A stretch of 6,363 nt of DNA from a bacterium (GTDB taxonomy: Bacteria > Latescibacterota > UBA2968 > GCA-2709665), in contig JAQCGA010000254.1 of assembly GCA_027619145.1 (NCBI GenBank), forward strand, positions 1 through 6,363, read 5' to 3'. Positions within the stretch are counted from its first letter, which is position 1. Each line of letters begins with the position of its first letter. Shown one piece after another: positions 41 through 6,363 of this stretch. The notes beneath the pieces are model-generated. The model made no database searches and was not told the DNA's origin. It worked only from the letters and a program-made list of their open reading frames with translations. The translations under genes and the position numbers were made by a program.

Positions 41-445
41 CTACGCAATCTCAAGTGAAAAGTGTCCAATATTTCCATTCCCATAATCGGGAATCTCGAC
101 CATCAGTCTGCCGTTTTTATCCGGTGAAAACCATCCCGAGATCGAATTTTTATAACCAATGACTCCAGTTACCGGTTCGCTCGCCGACTCTGTTGGAGTG
201 TCGGCACTGGTCATTGATACCGCATCCATTTCGGAGGATTTATTGTTAGTAATCCCCTTATTACTGCTTTGCCCGGGGGGCGTTTTGCCGGAAGCCCCCT
301 TCGCGGCATAAACCCTTTCGCCGGAACCGCTCGAATCGGCGGACAGGGGCGACTCACCCGGTCCTCCGCACGCTGTCAGCCCGAACGTCACAACTGCAAA
401 CATAAGCGCATAGCAAACAAATCCTGATAACCAGTGCCTTTTCAT
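41..445 (-). CDS. Small secreted lipoprotein of unknown function
   Basis: Predicted 134-residue lipoprotein. The N-terminus MKRHWLSGF is followed by a hydrophobic stretch and the lipobox L-T-A-C (residues 23-26), so signal peptidase II should cleave before Cys26, which would carry the lipid. The next residue is Gly, not Asp, which in enteric bacteria favours outer-membrane sorting. Residues 27 to about 90 form a Ser/Gly/Thr/Asn-rich low-complexity linker. The last 40 or so residues (IGYKNSISGWFSPDKNGRL and onward) look like short beta strands; I recognise no family. I chose the ATG at 445 because AGAGG lies 6 nt upstream and the signal peptide then starts normally. A GTG at 466 would add seven residues but has no well-placed ribosome binding site. 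The gene is preceded by a strong sigma-54-type promoter and repeated dyads, so it is the likely target of the NtrC-type regulator encoded upstream. No terminator is visible in the 40 bases left after the TAG stop. Confidence 0.8.
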   Translation of the reverse strand: MKRHWLSGFVCYALMFAVVTFGLTACGGPGESPLSADSSGSGERVYAAKGASGKTPPGQSSNKGITNNKSSEMDAVSMTSADTPTESASEPVTGVIGYKNSISGWFSPDKNGRLMVEIPDYGNGNIGHFSLEIA

Positions 446-456: not shown

Positions 457-529
457 TTCTACACACTGTGAGAAAACTTGCTCCTGAAACGATCTTTCAT
501 TAGTTTTGTGTTTGACACCCTCCCGAAAT

Positions 530-546
530 AGCAAGGGTCGTACCGG
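530..546 (-). promoter_or_regulatory. Sigma-54 (-24/-12) promoter of the lipoprotein gene
   Basis: The minus strand reads CCGGTACGACCCTTGCT. Against the known sigma-54 consensus YTGGCACGRNNNTTGCW it differs at only two specified positions. It keeps the invariant GG (-24) and GC (-12) with exactly 10 nt between them. The predicted start of transcription is near 519, giving a leader of about 74 nt before the lipoprotein ATG at 445. An NtrC-type activator with a GAFT loop is encoded just upstream, and candidate activator sites and an IHF-like box lie at the usual distances. No start site has been mapped, so the assignment rests on sequence match and context. Confidence 0.78.
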
Positions 547-586: not shown

Positions 587-653
587 ATTAATGCTATATA
601 TTTTTATACAGATGCATTTCCGAGGAAAAAAAAAGAACTGCGATCCGGCATAC

Positions 654-667
654 GAGTGATATCACGC
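654..667. promoter_or_regulatory. Dyad copy A (GCGTG-N4-CACGC), likely activator site
   Basis: Reads GAGTGATATCACGC, 9 of 10 specified positions of the shared dyad, with a perfect GTGATATCAC core. Its centre is about 141 bp upstream of the predicted sigma-54 start site, a classic distance for an upstream activating site of an NtrC-family protein. The surrounding sequence (GGCAT before, ATC after) is also shared with copy B. Confidence 0.55.
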
Positions 668-688
668 ATCCCTCCTACCGAACCCCTG

Positions 689-702: not shown

Positions 703-813
703 AATTTCTACAGGGTGGAAACGGTTCTTATGAACATAAATTACTGTTTACAAATATTATATGATATACATACCGAAACTTCCCGCTCGTGCCTACCATC
801 CATTTCAGGCGCT

Positions 814-855
814 GAGAGTGGGGCATGCGTGTTTTCACGCATCGAAGGTTCTCTC
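814..855. repeat. Interrupted stem-loop enclosing dyad copy B
   Basis: Outer arms GAGAG (814-818) and CTCTC (851-855) enclose a perfect 7-bp stem ATGCGTG/CACGCAT (825-831 and 836-842) with a TTTT loop. The inner stem contains the second dyad copy. There is no T-run after it on either strand, so it is not an intrinsic terminator. It could be a DNA-binding site, a structured RNA, or both; the dyad copies nearby favour a protein-binding site. Confidence 0.45.
827..840. promoter_or_regulatory. Dyad copy B (GCGTG-N4-CACGC), likely activator site
   Basis: Reads GCGTGTTTTCACGC, a perfect match to the shared dyad. Its centre is about 314 bp upstream of the predicted sigma-54 start site. Together with its flanks it aligns with copy A over about 22 bases (GGCAT, CG, TG, TCACGCATC in common) with one 2-nt gap, so the two probably share ancestry or function. 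Confidence 0.5.
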
Positions 856-899
856 CCGGATATCCATACAACTTTCTGTTTTTAATATGTTTATCTTAC

Positions 900-935
900 A
901 AAATAAGGAGGGCCGCCTCTGGCGATCCTCCTTAT
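900..935 (-). terminator. Intrinsic terminator of the kinase-dioxygenase-regulator operon
   Basis: On the minus strand a perfect 9-bp stem ATAAGGAGG/CCTCCTTAT (927-935 and 903-911), with a further GCC/GGC pairing inside the loop, runs directly into TTTT then G. It begins about 37 bases after the TAG stop of the regulator gene. The mirror reading on the plus strand has no T-run, so termination should be leftward only. The short T-run suggests it may be incomplete. Confidence 0.7.
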
Positions 936-955
936 CTGGCCCTGCCTGACAAAAC

Positions 956-969
956 GCGTGATATCGCGC
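956..969. promoter_or_regulatory. Dyad copy C (GCGTG-N4-CACGC)
   Basis: Reads GCGTGATATCGCGC, 9 of 10 specified positions, and aligns with copy A over 20 bases with 17 identities. It sits between the stop codon of the regulator gene and its terminator, about 443 bp upstream of the predicted sigma-54 start site. That is far for an activating site but workable by looping. It could instead be incidental or serve another role. Confidence 0.4.
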
Positions 970-972
970 AGC

Positions 973-2361
973 CTACGCCTCGTCCCCCCTGGGCTCAATC
1001 CCGTACTTCTGCATCCGGTACCGCAGCACATGGCGGCTGATGTGGAGCAGCCGGGCGGTTTGCGAGAGATTCCCGTGCGTGTGCTTCAGTGCCTTCACAA
1101 TCACTTCCCGCTCCAGATCCTCCAGCGGCAAGCCCCAGGGAGGAAATTCAATCTCAATCAGTCCCGCTCCGGAAACCTTTGCGGGACTGCTTTCCAACTC
1201 ATGGGATTTTTTGCGCCGATCAATGGGCAGGTTGGAATCTTCAACTTGCTCCCCGTCCGTCAACAGCACCGCTCGCTCAATCACATTTTTCAATTCCCGG
1301 ACATTCCCGGGCCAGGAATAAGACACCAGCAACTCCTCCGCCTCTGCGGACAGCGGACGGAAAGGGAGGCTGTGCAGGCGGCTGTACTCTTTCAAAAAGT
1401 GCACGGCCAGCAACAAAATATCTTCCCTTCGCTCCCGAAGGGGCGGAAGATGGATGGGGATCACGTTCAGGCGGTAGTACATATCTTCCCGAAACTCCCC
1501 ATCTTCCACAGCCTGCTGCAGGCTCTTATTGGTCGCGGCTATAAACCGAACGCCGGCAGACAGTTCCTCGGTCCCTCCCAGGCGGCGGAACTGGCGTGTT
1601 TCCAGCACAGTAAGCAGTTTGGCCTGTACGTCCAGCGACATCAGCCCGATCTCGTCCAGGAAAAGAGTACCCTGTCCGGCCACCTCCACCAGGCCCCGCT
1701 TGCGCGCCGCTGCATCCGTAAACGCACCTTTTTCATAGCCGAACAACTCGGCTTCCAGAAGGTTTGCGGGGATGGAAGCACAGTTGAGCGAAAGGAAATG
1801 TCGATCCTTCCGACCATCCGTATCGTAAATGAGGCGGGCAATCGCCTCCTTGCCTGTCCCGCTTTCCCCGGTAATCAGCACCGTGGTAGCCGTCTTTGCA
1901 ACCCGGCGAACGAGTTCGAAGACCTCCTCCAGTGCAGAACTCTTTCCCACAATCTTATCCGTAGCAGCTCTTCGGATCTCTTTGTCTGTGCCGGTCTCCC
2001 CGATCAAACCGGCTACCAGAACACGCAGTTCCTCCATTGGAACGGGCTTGGTCACATATTTGTCCGCCCCAAGCGCGGCGGCTTCCGCCGCATACCGGGC
2101 CCGTTCGTACGCTGTGACCAGGACCACCCGGCAGCCCTCATCCATTTTCTTTAGCCGTCGAAGGGTCTCCATTCCATCGATGCCGGGCAGGCCCAGGTCC
2201 AGAAGTACAAGAGCGGGCATTGCCTGTTCGCACAAAACAAGCGCTTCCTCGCCGGACACCGCCGTTCGGACATCGTAACCCTGCCTCTTCATCAGATACT
2301 GAAGAGCTGTCAGGGTTTCCGCATCGTCCTCAACAACAAGAACATTGGCAGGCATATCCAT
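973..2361 (-). CDS. NtrC-family sigma-54-dependent response regulator
   Basis: A 462-residue bacterial enhancer-binding protein with three domains. The receiver (about 5-120) has acidic residues Glu11-Asp12-Asp13, phosphoacceptor Asp55, Thr83 and Lys105. The AAA+ ATPase (about 137-365) has Walker A GESGTGKE (165-172), the sigma-54-contacting loop GAFTDA (212-217), Walker B LFLDE (232-236), sensor I AATN (274-277), arginines in FREDMYYRL (289-297) and the WPGNVREL sensor II region (349-356). A C-terminal Fis-type helix-turn-helix (about 415-457) contains SQTARLLHISRHVLRYRM. All parts needed to remodel sigma-54 polymerase are present. It should be phosphorylated by the hybrid kinase of the same operon. 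It starts 27 nt after the dioxygenase stop. A second ATG at 2355 (Met3) has GGTGG about 6 nt upstream and may be the true start. Its likely target is the lipoprotein promoter downstream; autoregulation is possible. Confidence 0.95.
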   Translation of the reverse strand: MDMPANVLVVEDDAETLTALQYLMKRQGYDVRTAVSGEEALVLCEQAMPALVLLDLGLPGIDGMETLRRLKKMDEGCRVVLVTAYERARYAAEAAALGADKYVTKPVPMEELRVLVAGLIGETGTDKEIRRAATDKIVGKSSALEEVFELVRRVAKTATTVLITGESGTGKEAIARLIYDTDGRKDRHFLSLNCASIPANLLEAELFGYEKGAFTDAAARKRGLVEVAGQGTLFLDEIGLMSLDVQAKLLTVLETRQFRRLGGTEELSAGVRFIAATNKSLQQAVEDGEFREDMYYRLNVIPIHLPPLRERREDILLLAVHFLKEYSRLHSLPFRPLSAEAEELLVSYSWPGNVRELKNVIERAVLLTDGEQVEDSNLPIDRRKKSHELESSPAKVSGAGLIEIEFPPWGLPLEDLEREVIVKALKHTHGNLSQTARLLHISRHVLRYRMQKYGIEPRGDEA

Positions 2362-3178: not shown

Positions 3179-3184
3179 CTCCTT
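3179..3184 (-). promoter_or_regulatory. Ribosome binding site of the dioxygenase, overlapping the kinase stop
   Basis: AAGGAG on the minus strand, 7 nt before the ATG at 3171. Its first A is also the last base of the kinase TGA stop codon, so ribosomes finishing the kinase are positioned to start the dioxygenase. It decides for the ATG at 3171 over the TTG at 3177. Confidence 0.8.
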
Positions 3185-5382
3185 CAACTGGCTTGATCAA
3201 GTACCTCCCGGACAAGCCGGGAAAGGGGTTCTAACCGGATGGGTTTTTCCAGGTATCCTGCCGTATCCTGTACCAGATCTGTATCTCCAGATTCTCCCAG
3301 CGGATACCCTGTCATCACCACAACCGGAATCCCGGCATTCCGGGTATGCAAAGCAGCAAGCAATTCACGCCCACCCATTTTGGGCATCACCACGTCTGTA
3401 AGCACCAGAGAAATCTCATCTTTGTGCGCATCGTACACAGACAACGCCTCGTCTCCATTGGACGCAGAAAGCACCTGATAATCCAAGCGCTCTAGCAGGG
3501 TTTGTACCAGCTCCCGCACAGCTTCTTCATCTTCTACGACCAGAATTGTTTCTCCAGATCCCTTAGGAATCGGAGTACGAATCTCTTCCACGGGCGCACT
3601 GATCTTTGGCGCGCTTGGAAGATAAATCTTGAACGTCGTCCCCTGCCCTTCTTCACTTGTCACCAGAATTTCCCCGGCATGTTGCTTCACAATCCCGTAC
3701 ACCTGAGCCAACCCCAGGCCTGTTCCTTTATCCGGGCCTTTTGTCGTAAAAAAAGGATCGAACACATGCTCCAGAATTTCCGGCGGCATCCCCGTCCCCG
3801 TATCTGAAATTTCCAGGACAACCCAATCTCCGGACACCAATTCAGGCATTGGCAAGGGTTGCCCAGGGACCAGTTCAAGCCTTGAAAGCGCCATGTGGAA
3901 CGTGCCGCCGCCTGGCATTGCATCACGCGCATTCACAGCCAGATTGGTCAGCACTTGCTGAAGCTGCGTTGGATCTGCATGGACCTCGTCATCCTGGATC
4001 TCAAAAGATGCTGTAATCCGAATAGTCTCGGGTAAGGTACGCTCCAGCAACCCCACCATATCGGTTACAAACTGGCGCAAAACGACTGGCTCGCGCCGCA
4101 CAATGCTCTTTCGGCTGAAATCCAGAATCTGCCGGACCAGCAAAGCCGCTCGCTGCCCCTGACCCGAAATCATATCCAGATAGCTGCGCCCGGATTCAGA
4201 AAACGTCTCTTCCAGTCCCAGAATCTCTGCAGAAGCCAGAATCACTGTGAGCAGGTTGTTGAAATCATGCGCAATCCCGGCAGCAAGCTGGCCTACTGCC
4301 GCAAGCCGGTCTTGCTGTAGCACATGCTCCTGGACCTCCCGCTCGTGGGTCACTTCCCGCACCACCAGCACCCATCCCCGGCCTGTTCCCTCTTCTACAA
4401 TTGGCTGGGCCAAAACTTCAAAAATCCGTCGAGGCGGTCCTTCCAACAACACATCTTTGGGTACTCCGCCAGACTGAAATACCAGACCTTCTACGGCCCC
4501 GGTACCAATGCGCACAACCTCGCCATCCAACCCGACTTGTGCCAGCAACTCCAGATATTCTTGAGCCACAGGATTGGCTACAATCAAACGCTTCTCTTCG
4601 TCTAACAGACATACCCCTGCCGGTAGATTCTCCACCAGGTTCTGCAACTCGAATGTGCGCTGACGGACCCGCGTTTCAAGCGTCTGATTGAGCCGCTCCA
4701 GATCTTGCTCTCGTTCCCGAAGCGACTCATTCGCCTCGCGCAGCGCCTCTGTCGCCCGGCTCACCTCTGTTTCCAGCAACGTATTAAACTGCTGAAGCTC
4801 GTCAAAAACCTGGATGCTATTTAGCGTAACCGCAATATGTTCGGCAATACTTTCCAGAAAACGCCGGTCTTCCACCTGGAACGCTTCAGGGCTGGAGTGG
4901 CTCAAGTTGAGCACCCCGGAAATCTCCCCCTCCGCCATCAGCGGCAAACAAAAAAGCGCCCCCACTGTAACCGAGGACGCCGGATCGGGCACAAACTGAT
5001 TGGCGTGTCGTACATCCGAAAAAAAAGCGGCCTTCTGGTGTTGTACAACCCACCCAACCACACCCTCGCCAGTCCGAAAACTCCGGGGTGAAAGGCTGGC
5101 CATGTTATAAAACCCCATGTCCTGGTCCTGCTGTCCCTTTGCCGCCTTCAAATAGGCCAGGTTTTTCTCAGAATCGTACAGAAAAATAGAGCAGTTCTCT
5201 GCTCCGGCCTCTGCCAACATCAAATCAATAATCACTTCAAAAACCCGGTGCGCATCCCGCGTGTGCTGAAGTGCCGCCCCAATCCGGCGGATTGCCGCCG
5301 ACTCCCGAATCCTCTCTTCAAACTGCAGAGAAGATGCAGACAGTTCCTCGCGCAGACGCTCAATGTACCGGGGCTGATCCAA
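3184..5382 (-). CDS. Cytosolic hybrid sensor histidine kinase (GAF-PAS-HisKA-HATPase-REC)
   Basis: A 732-residue hybrid kinase with no membrane segment or signal peptide, so it should sense a cytoplasmic cue. Domains in order: short N-terminal helix (1-35), GAF (about 36-190), coiled coil (about 190-248), PAS-like (about 250-345), HisKA with His372 in [10 protein letters not shown], HATPase (about 470-590) and a receiver (about 612-730). The HATPase has Asn484 in the N box, DTGTG (527-531), DPFFTTK and GTGLGL (553-558). The receiver has Glu617-Asp618-Glu619, Asp663, Thr691 and Lys713. The HDFNN context keeps the acidic-x-x-Asn pattern linked to phosphatase activity in HisKA kinases, so it may both load and unload its partner. 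No HPt domain is seen, so the attached receiver may act as a brake or sink while the separate NtrC-type regulator is the output. It starts at TTG 5382: an in-frame TGA lies 15 nt upstream and the next Met is about residue 54. Ligands of GAF and PAS are unknown. Confidence 0.95.
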
Positions 5383-5582: not shown

Positions 5583-6363
5583 TCAACCCTCGGATCGTGT
5601 GCGCGCCTGAAGCAAACCGTCCATTTCGGCAACATCCCGCATCGCACCCAGTGCCTGAAACCTGTTGCGAGCCACTTCAAAAGCTTCGTACGCCTGGCCA
5701 GCCTGCCCCCGAGCCGCAGCCATTTTGCCCAGATCCCGGTGCGCCTCCGCCGCGCCCAGCGGATTGGAATACTCCTCGCTGAGCCGCAAGCTGTCCCGAA
5801 ACATACTCTCCGCCGTATGCCAGCGCCCACGCAATGTAAACAACCGTCCCATCAAACGATAGGCATCTGCTTCAATCACACGATTGCCAATTTTTCGACA
5901 AACATCAAAAGCGCGGGCACAACAAAGTGCAACCAGCGAAGTATCGCCCAGCTCCAGCAATACTTCCGCCCGTGCCAGATGAATATTTGCCATCACGTCA
6001 AACTGCTGATTCTCTCGTGCAATTTCGAAACCAAGTTCATAACACTTCATGGCCGCATTCCAATCCTGCCGGTCCGCATGCGTCATGCCCAGGTTGTGAT
6101 ATGCCCGGGCCTGGCCTCTGATATTGCCGATTTCCCTGCAAGTCTTCAAGCAAGATTCGTACTGTGAAACCGCAGCGTCCAGATCGCCACGAATGGTAGA
6201 AAGCACCGCCAGATTGTTGAGCACATTCACCTCAATGCCCCGATCTCCGGCTGTCCTTGCACGCCCCAACCCTTCGCGGTACGCCTCTTCCGCCGCATCG
6301 TATTCACCGCGTTGCATAAACACCTCACCCCGATTCGACGCCACCCGTGCCAGGCCCTGCTCG
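5583..6363 (-). CDS. Tetratricopeptide-repeat protein, C-terminal part (5' end outside window)
   Basis: The reading frame stays open to the window edge, so this is the last 259 residues of a longer protein. The GTG at 6344 is inside repeat 1 and is not the real start. Six tandem helical repeats of exactly 40 residues can be aligned on N-x-[GA] at positions 6-8 and a small-residue AA-type pair near positions 19-20 (RGEYDAA, RGDLDAA, RQDWNAA, LGDTSLV, RGRWHTA, RGQAGQA). This 40-residue spacing matches the TPR_12-type arrays found in MalT-like regulators, LGN and kinesin light chains, which bind protein partners or peptides. A short tail (AEMDGLLQARTRSEG) follows. The missing N-terminus could carry a kinase, ATPase, regulator or more repeats; nothing here decides. 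It ends 200 bp before the kinase gene, which has its own promoter, so it is probably a separate transcription unit. Confidence 0.85.
   Translation of the reverse strand, partial: EQGLARVASNRGEVFMQRGEYDAAEEAYREGLGRARTAGDRGIEVNVLNNLAVLSTIRGDLDAAVSQYESCLKTCREIGNIRGQARAYHNLGMTHADRQDWNAAMKCYELGFEIARENQQFDVMANIHLARAEVLLELGDTSLVALCCARAFDVCRKIGNRVIEADAYRLMGRLFTLRGRWHTAESMFRDSLRLSEEYSNPLGAAEAHRDLGKMAAARGQAGQAYEAFEVARNRFQALGAMRDVAEMDGLLQARTRSEG

What the first reader, a model, noticed from the sequence alone, without database searches (positions are those of the whole stretch)
530..546. High-quality sigma-54 promoter drives a lone lipoprotein gene next to an NtrC-type regulator
Minus-strand CCGGTACGACCCTTGCT matches the -24/-12 consensus with exact GG-N10-GC spacing and points at the lipoprotein at 445-41. 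The gene just upstream encodes a complete sigma-54 activator. This gives a concrete predicted target for an otherwise orphan two-component system and a lipoprotein of unknown function.
Basis: partly seen in the sequence, partly recalled or inferred. Interest (0 to 1): 0.72.

Follow-up and report, generated by a model that had tools for sequence, protein, structure and literature searches.

The report
Sigma-54 promoter with upstream activator sites
A lipoprotein gene of an uncultured bacterium has a convincing sigma-54-type promoter, and in front of it lie three copies of a palindrome that the activator encoded next door may bind, which makes this a good but ordinary case of a known type of gene switch.

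Summary
CCGGTACGACCCTTGCT lies at 546-530 (-), with GG-N10-GC. It is the best sigma-54-type match in the window, with 2 mismatches to YTGGCACGNNNNTTGCW: good, not perfect. It ends 84 nt before the lipoprotein ATG, where chance gives such a site in about 0.1-0.5% of cases. The activator gene is complete; its GAFTDA loop is an accepted working variant.

The 527-nt gap holds three copies of a dyad, TGCGTG-N4-CACGCA, at 653-668, 826-841 (perfect) and 955-970. The nearest lies 107-122 bp upstream of the promoter, the usual enhancer distance. Each is followed by an AT-rich stretch with AAACARNNNNTTR. A stable hairpin (935-903), probably a terminator, follows the activator gene.

Best reading: the hybrid kinase of the same gene cluster signals to the activator, which binds the dyads and opens sigma-54 polymerase at 530-546.

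Not shown: RpoN in this genome (none is held), the start site, binding, and conservation. "Lone" is unproven: only 40 nt downstream are visible. New member of a known kind.

The parts
530..546 (-). -24/-12 sigma-54-type promoter CCGGTACGACCCTTGCT
   Evidence: 2 mismatches to YTGGCACGNNNNTTGCW, best in window
519..519 (-). Predicted transcription start (about +1), leader of about 74 nt
   Evidence: Inference from the spacing of -24/-12 promoters; not mapped
41..445 (-). Lipoprotein gene, 134 aa, ATG 445, AGAGG at 456-452
   Evidence: no Pfam or NCBIfam match; best codon score of six frames
368..445 (-). Signal peptide and lipobox LTAC, Cys26 at 370-368
   Evidence: Read by eye; N-terminal helix in a poor model
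653..668 (.). Dyad 1, CGAGTG-ATAT-CACGCA, candidate enhancer site 107-122 bp upstream of the promoter
826..841 (.). Dyad 2, TGCGTG-TTTT-CACGCA, perfect
955..970 (.). Dyad 3, CGCGTG-ATAT-CGCGCA, just after the activator stop codon
574..586 (-). AAACAATAATTTA in AT-rich stretch between promoter and dyad 1; IHF-like (1 mismatch)
   Evidence: the IHF likeness alone is not significant
737..749 (-). AAACAGTAATTTA, second copy of the AT-rich motif
869..881 (-). AAACAGAAAGTTG, third copy of the AT-rich motif
903..935 (-). Stable hairpin after the activator gene, probable terminator
   Evidence: z -3.8; not flagged by the simple terminator scan, the T run after it is short
973..2361 (-). Activator: receiver - sigma-54 AAA+ (GAFTDA) - Fis-type HTH, 462 aa
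2389..3177 (-). Phytanoyl-CoA dioxygenase family (PhyH) protein between kinase and activator
3184..5382 (-). Hybrid kinase GAF-PAS-HisKA-HATPase-receiver, 732 aa, candidate partner of the activator

Best explanation
The site at 546-530 (-) is a real sigma-54 promoter for the lipoprotein at 445-41. The hybrid kinase (5382-3184) leads to phosphorylation of the receiver of the activator (2361-973). The active activator binds the NtrC-like dyads in the gap, chiefly the one at 653-668, and the AT-rich stretch in between helps the DNA loop. Its AAA+ ring then contacts sigma-54 through the GAFTDA loop and opens the promoter with ATP. The hairpin at 935-903 ends the activator transcript, so the lipoprotein depends on its own promoter. 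Shown here: the site and its odds, the dyads, the hairpin, the domains. Inferred: RpoN in this organism, phosphotransfer, that the dyads are this activator's sites, looping, termination and the start near 519.
For: Best sigma-54 site in the window, right strand, 84 nt before the ATG, chance about 0.1-0.5%. Published surveys find that similar sites 0-200 nt before a start codon are enriched only in genomes with sigma-54 (PMC3162934, section 7). Complete activator with receiver, AAA+ and HTH; GAFTDA in 30 of 30 aligned sequences, and D at that place is known in FlgR, the only such activator of Campylobacter (PMC3162934 passage). Three dyads in the gap: one family of three or more in 1 of 1500 dinucleotide shuffles; 32 sites in 846,401 bases of other loci predict 0.02 here. 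Dyad 1 lies 107-122 bp from the promoter; a review gives 100-150 bp (PMC7057263 passage). No sigma-70-type site on the minus strand in the simple scan of the window. The sigma-54 DNA-binding domain was found in 12 of 12 genomes of other lineages that I chose.
Against: Shuffles that keep local composition reach a dyad family of three or more in 47 of 3000. Part of the repetition may come from duplication: units 1 and 2 align over 87 columns. The dyad is absent from the seven 45-48% activator loci examined. No conservation test was possible. The genome is not held, so RpoN is untested. The simple scan did not flag the hairpin as a terminator. The kinase ends in its own receiver, so an extra phosphotransfer protein may be needed.
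Confidence: 0.6

Rival explanations
1. The promoter is a real sigma-54 promoter, but another activator of the same cell works on it; the dyads belong to that activator or to a repressor, and the neighbour activator has its targets elsewhere.
For: Genomes of other lineages hold many activators: 8-18 matches per genome at E 1e-60 in the 11 genomes. Binding of the dyads by this activator is untested.
Against: The dyads lie between this activator's gene and the promoter, one of them just after its stop codon. Activators that control neighbouring genes or a downstream RNA are documented in D. vulgaris (PMC4641369, table passages).
Confidence: 0.2
2. The GG-N10-GC match is a chance resemblance. The lipoprotein is transcribed from another kind of promoter, perhaps in the AT-rich stretch 558-612, and the dyads are an operator for something else.
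For: Two mismatches, including the T before GG. A site this good appears on either strand in about 1% of shuffles of the gap. The AT-rich stretch could hold a promoter type that the sigma-70 scan does not know.
Against: Low odds at this position and strand; agreement of site, dyads and a neighbouring sigma-54 activator; no sigma-70-type site on the minus strand in the scan.
Confidence: 0.17
3. The repeats in the gap are remnants of a duplicated or mobile piece of DNA with no part in regulation; any promoter function is independent of them.
For: Units around dyads 1 and 2 align over 87 columns (score 46; 1000 block shuffles: mean 23, best 42).
Against: The dyads and the AAACARNNNNTTR core recur in all three units while the rest has drifted. 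Rfam gave only one sub-threshold match, on the hairpin at 905-933.
Confidence: 0.03

Closest known systems
Classical sigma-54 promoters with NtrC or NifA enhancers and IHF-assisted looping (general scheme in PMC7057263, passages seen)
   Same: -24/-12 promoter, dyad sites 100-150 bp upstream, AT-rich stretch between, activator with receiver, AAA+ and Fis-type HTH
   Different: Three widely spaced dyads (centres about 142, 315 and 444 bp before the predicted start), dyad sequence of its own, target is an orphan lipoprotein; no experiment
Receiver-type sigma-54 activators with local targets in Desulfovibrio vulgaris (PMC4641369, passages seen)
   Same: Activators acting on neighbouring operons or on an RNA encoded just downstream; GAFTDA in DVU2106; some binding sites more than 300 bp from the promoter
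   Different: Other lineage and other site motif; supported there by comparison of genomes and by binding data cited in the paper
Rrp2-RpoN control of lipoproteins in Borrelia (mentioned in PMC3162934, passages seen)
   Same: A sigma-54 activator linked to lipoprotein production
   Different: No homology of the lipoprotein was tested or is claimed; here the target would be direct and next door

Membership tests
Sigma-54 (-24/-12) promoter | GG and GC with 10 nt between, in a good match to the wider consensus | tested here: met
   2 mismatches to YTGGCACGNNNNTTGCW, chance 0.1-0.5% at this place; consensus form recalled
Sigma-54 (-24/-12) promoter | Right strand and 0-200 nt before a start codon | tested here: met
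   84 nt before ATG 445; criterion from PMC3162934
Sigma-54 (-24/-12) promoter | RpoN present in the organism | not testable with these tools
   No genome held; 12 of 12 chosen genomes of other lineages have PF04552, indirect only
Sigma-54 (-24/-12) promoter | Mapped start at the site and loss of activity without RpoN | not testable with these tools
   Needs an experiment
Sigma-54 (-24/-12) promoter | Conserved upstream of orthologues | not tested
   No relative of the lipoprotein found; not sought in genome collections
Enhancer (upstream activator sequence) | Dyad sites about 100-150 bp upstream of the promoter | tested here: met
   Dyad 1 at 107-122 bp; two more further up
Enhancer (upstream activator sequence) | Dyads more frequent than chance | tested here: met
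   1 of 1500 dinucleotide shuffles but 47 of 3000 composition-keeping shuffles
Enhancer (upstream activator sequence) | Bound by the activator | not testable with these tools
   Needs a binding assay
NtrC-type enhancer-binding protein | Receiver, sigma-54 AAA+ and Fis-type HTH domains | tested here: met
   PF00072, PF00158, PF02954 above their cut-offs
NtrC-type enhancer-binding protein | GAFTGA loop or an accepted variant | tested here: met
   GAFTDA, invariant in 30 aligned sequences; variant accepted in PMC3162934 and PMC4641369
IHF site | Match to WATCAANNNNTTR better than chance | tested here: not met
   Best match has 1 mismatch; 1212 of 3000 shuffles do as well or better; consensus recalled
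Bacterial lipoprotein | Signal peptide with lipobox and Cys | tested here: met
   MKRHW...FGLTAC, Cys26, read by eye; no prediction program was run

The most novel reading that the evidence does not exclude
The gap is an enhancer array made by duplication of a whole promoter module (dyad, AT-rich bend element, -24/-12). Only the module next to the gene keeps a promoter, and the two decayed ones survive as distant activator sites (centres about 315 and 444 bp before the start) that feed one lineage-specific lipoprotein. Dyad 3, which lies within the 3' end of the activator's own message, could also tie activator binding to the end of that message.
Probability: 0.2. Interest if true: 0.42.

Novelty: new member of a known kind. 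Interest (0 to 1): 0.3.

Why it matters
It gives a two-component system of an uncultured lineage a concrete candidate DNA site and target, so one reporter construct and one footprint could settle it. The dyad TGCGTG-N4-CACGCA also offers a search motif for the clade of 57-65% identical activators found in metagenomes, whose targets I did not find described. The biology itself, sigma-54 governing a surface protein, fits a theme already in print (PMC3162934, passages seen).

Tried and rejected
Relatives of the lipoprotein: one protein among 10 candidates passed in the protein search, and it is the window's own; none in viral contigs. That search needs shared 5-residue words, and the lipoprotein was not sought in genome contigs or in whole genomes.

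These searches had different E-value limits (1e-60 to 1e-130) and in most only a part of the candidates per genome was scored, so weaker or unscored relatives may be missed. A PhyH search led to genomes with a 61% PhyH, but no activator passed the limit in their groups. So conservation of promoter and dyads was not tested.

The dyads were sought in the seven loci of 45-48% activators (L083-L088, L213) and not found. The DNA-reading helix differs in the three whose tail the script printed (L085, L086, L087), so this says little either way. The dyad pattern in viral contigs (44 stretches) was not followed.

Dyad 2 as a terminator was rejected: no T run follows. An IHF site by consensus was rejected as not significant: 1212 of 3000 shuffles do as well or better. 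The lipoprotein model, made without relatives, is too poor to search with (mean pLDDT 54). The one Rfam match (905-933 +, 26.1 bits against a cut-off of 40) is the hairpin after the activator gene. A literature search for the NtrC site consensus brought nothing useful, so that comparison is recalled.

Full report
WHAT IS THERE. The 17-mer CCGGTACGACCCTTGCT is at 546-530 on the minus strand, as reported. It keeps GG and GC with 10 nt between and differs from YTGGCACGNNNNTTGCW at two places. Requiring GG and GC, it is the best such site on either strand of the window; the runner-up has 3 mismatches and lies inside the kinase gene. A site of this quality on the correct strand arises in 0.42% of 5000 shuffles of the 527-nt stretch 446-972 and in 0.1% of 5000 shuffles of the 200 nt before the ATG. 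In 88 other bacterial loci, 846,401 bases read on both strands, 46 such sites occur, about 0.5% per 200-nt upstream region; those loci surround activator genes and may include true promoters. With a looser pattern the window is not enriched (15 found, 20.6 expected). The predicted start at about 519 leaves a leader of about 74 nt with AGAGG 6 nt before ATG 445.

THE GENE. The ORF 445-41 codes for 134 aa with a signal peptide and lipobox LTAC (by eye). Its codon score is the best of six frames (-0.07; the others -0.27 to -0.40), though its GC pattern by codon position is flatter than in the other genes. It matches no Pfam or NCBIfam model. The protein search found only the window's own copy. 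A model without relatives is poor (mean pLDDT 54): a signal helix, a long loose linker and a small strand-bearing end. Only 40 nt lie downstream in the window, so whether the gene is alone is open.

THE NEIGHBOURS. Kinase (GAF-PAS-HisKA-HATPase-receiver, 5382-3184), PhyH-family protein (3177-2389) and activator (2361-973) follow one another with gaps of 6 and 27 nt and probably form one transcript. The activator has receiver residues D55 and K105, Walker A GESGTGKE, GAFTDA and an HTH_8 domain. GAFTDA is invariant in the 30 aligned sequences, and present in 88 of the 120 listed relatives and in 11 of 80 general activator loci (forward frames). D at that place occurs in FlgR, the only such activator of Campylobacter (PMC3162934, passage seen). 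GAFTDA is listed for DVU2106 of D. vulgaris, among variants expected to work (PMC4641369, passages seen). Among the close relatives that carry a name are Handelsmanbacteria (P0018) and Latescibacterota (P0030, P0041), so the source is probably an uncultured member of that neighbourhood; this was not tested further.

The gap holds three copies of one dyad: CGAGTG-ATAT-CACGCA (653-668), TGCGTG-TTTT-CACGCA (826-841) and CGCGTG-ATAT-CGCGCA (955-970). Its form, TGC...GCA with a short spacer, is like NtrC sites (recalled). In the other bacterial loci, 32 sites with 2 or fewer mismatches in 846,401 bases predict 0.02 for this stretch. A family of three or more around any perfect dyad appears in 1 of 1500 dinucleotide shuffles, but in 47 of 3000 shuffles that keep local composition, so the range is about 0.1-1.6%. 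The nearest dyad is 107-122 bp upstream of the promoter; a review gives 100-150 bp, with looping often helped by IHF (PMC7057263, passages seen). In D. vulgaris four cases have the promoter more than 300 bp from its activator site (PMC4641369, passage seen). After each dyad, 66-76 nt further towards the lipoprotein, lies AAACARNNNNTTR (586-574, 749-737, 881-869). No shuffle of 3000 has three, but the motif was chosen after seeing it, and its likeness to an IHF site is not significant on its own. The units around dyads 1 and 2 align over 87 columns (score 46; best of 1000 block shuffles 42), and the counterpart of the promoter in unit 2 lacks GG and GC. The other two pairs of units are only weakly alike (p 0.036 and 0.012). 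This suggests an old duplication with one promoter kept. A stable hairpin (935-903; z -3.8) follows the activator gene and is probably its terminator, although the simple scan did not list it.

MECHANISM. Most likely the kinase signals to the activator, which binds the dyads, loops over the AT-rich DNA and opens sigma-54 polymerase at 530-546, switching on the lipoprotein. The DNA features and domains are shown; RpoN, phosphotransfer, binding, termination and the start are inferred. The sigma-54 DNA-binding domain was found in 12 of 12 genomes of other lineages that I chose, and in 4 of 14 control genomes, which is indirect support. A published survey holds that well-placed sites of high score are highly likely genuine in genomes with sigma-54, and links sigma-54 to the cell exterior, lipoproteins included (PMC3162934, section 7 and passages); I did not compute that survey's own score.

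LIMITS. The dyads are absent near the seven 45-48% activators examined.

VERDICT. It is a well-formed example of a known arrangement.

Noticed in passing
   Followed up: partly
574-762: Two AT-rich 26-nt repeats (574-599 and 737-762, 81% alike) are part of a larger repeated unit of the gap.
   Followed up: yes
3184-5382: The kinase has no obvious membrane span and ends in its own receiver, so it may need an extra phosphotransfer step to reach the activator (span judged by eye).
   Followed up: no
5583-6362: A TPR-repeat protein, cut by the window edge, lies upstream of the kinase on the same strand.
   Followed up: no
L214:1595-1681: In the locus of the 61% PhyH relative there is a 1-mismatch dyad (1595-1610) within 90 nt of a 2-mismatch sigma-54-like site on the minus strand; perhaps chance.
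   Followed up: no
L088:3290-3306: A sigma-54-like site with 1 mismatch, CTGGTACGAACGTTGCA on the minus strand, lies in the locus of a 45% activator.
   Followed up: no
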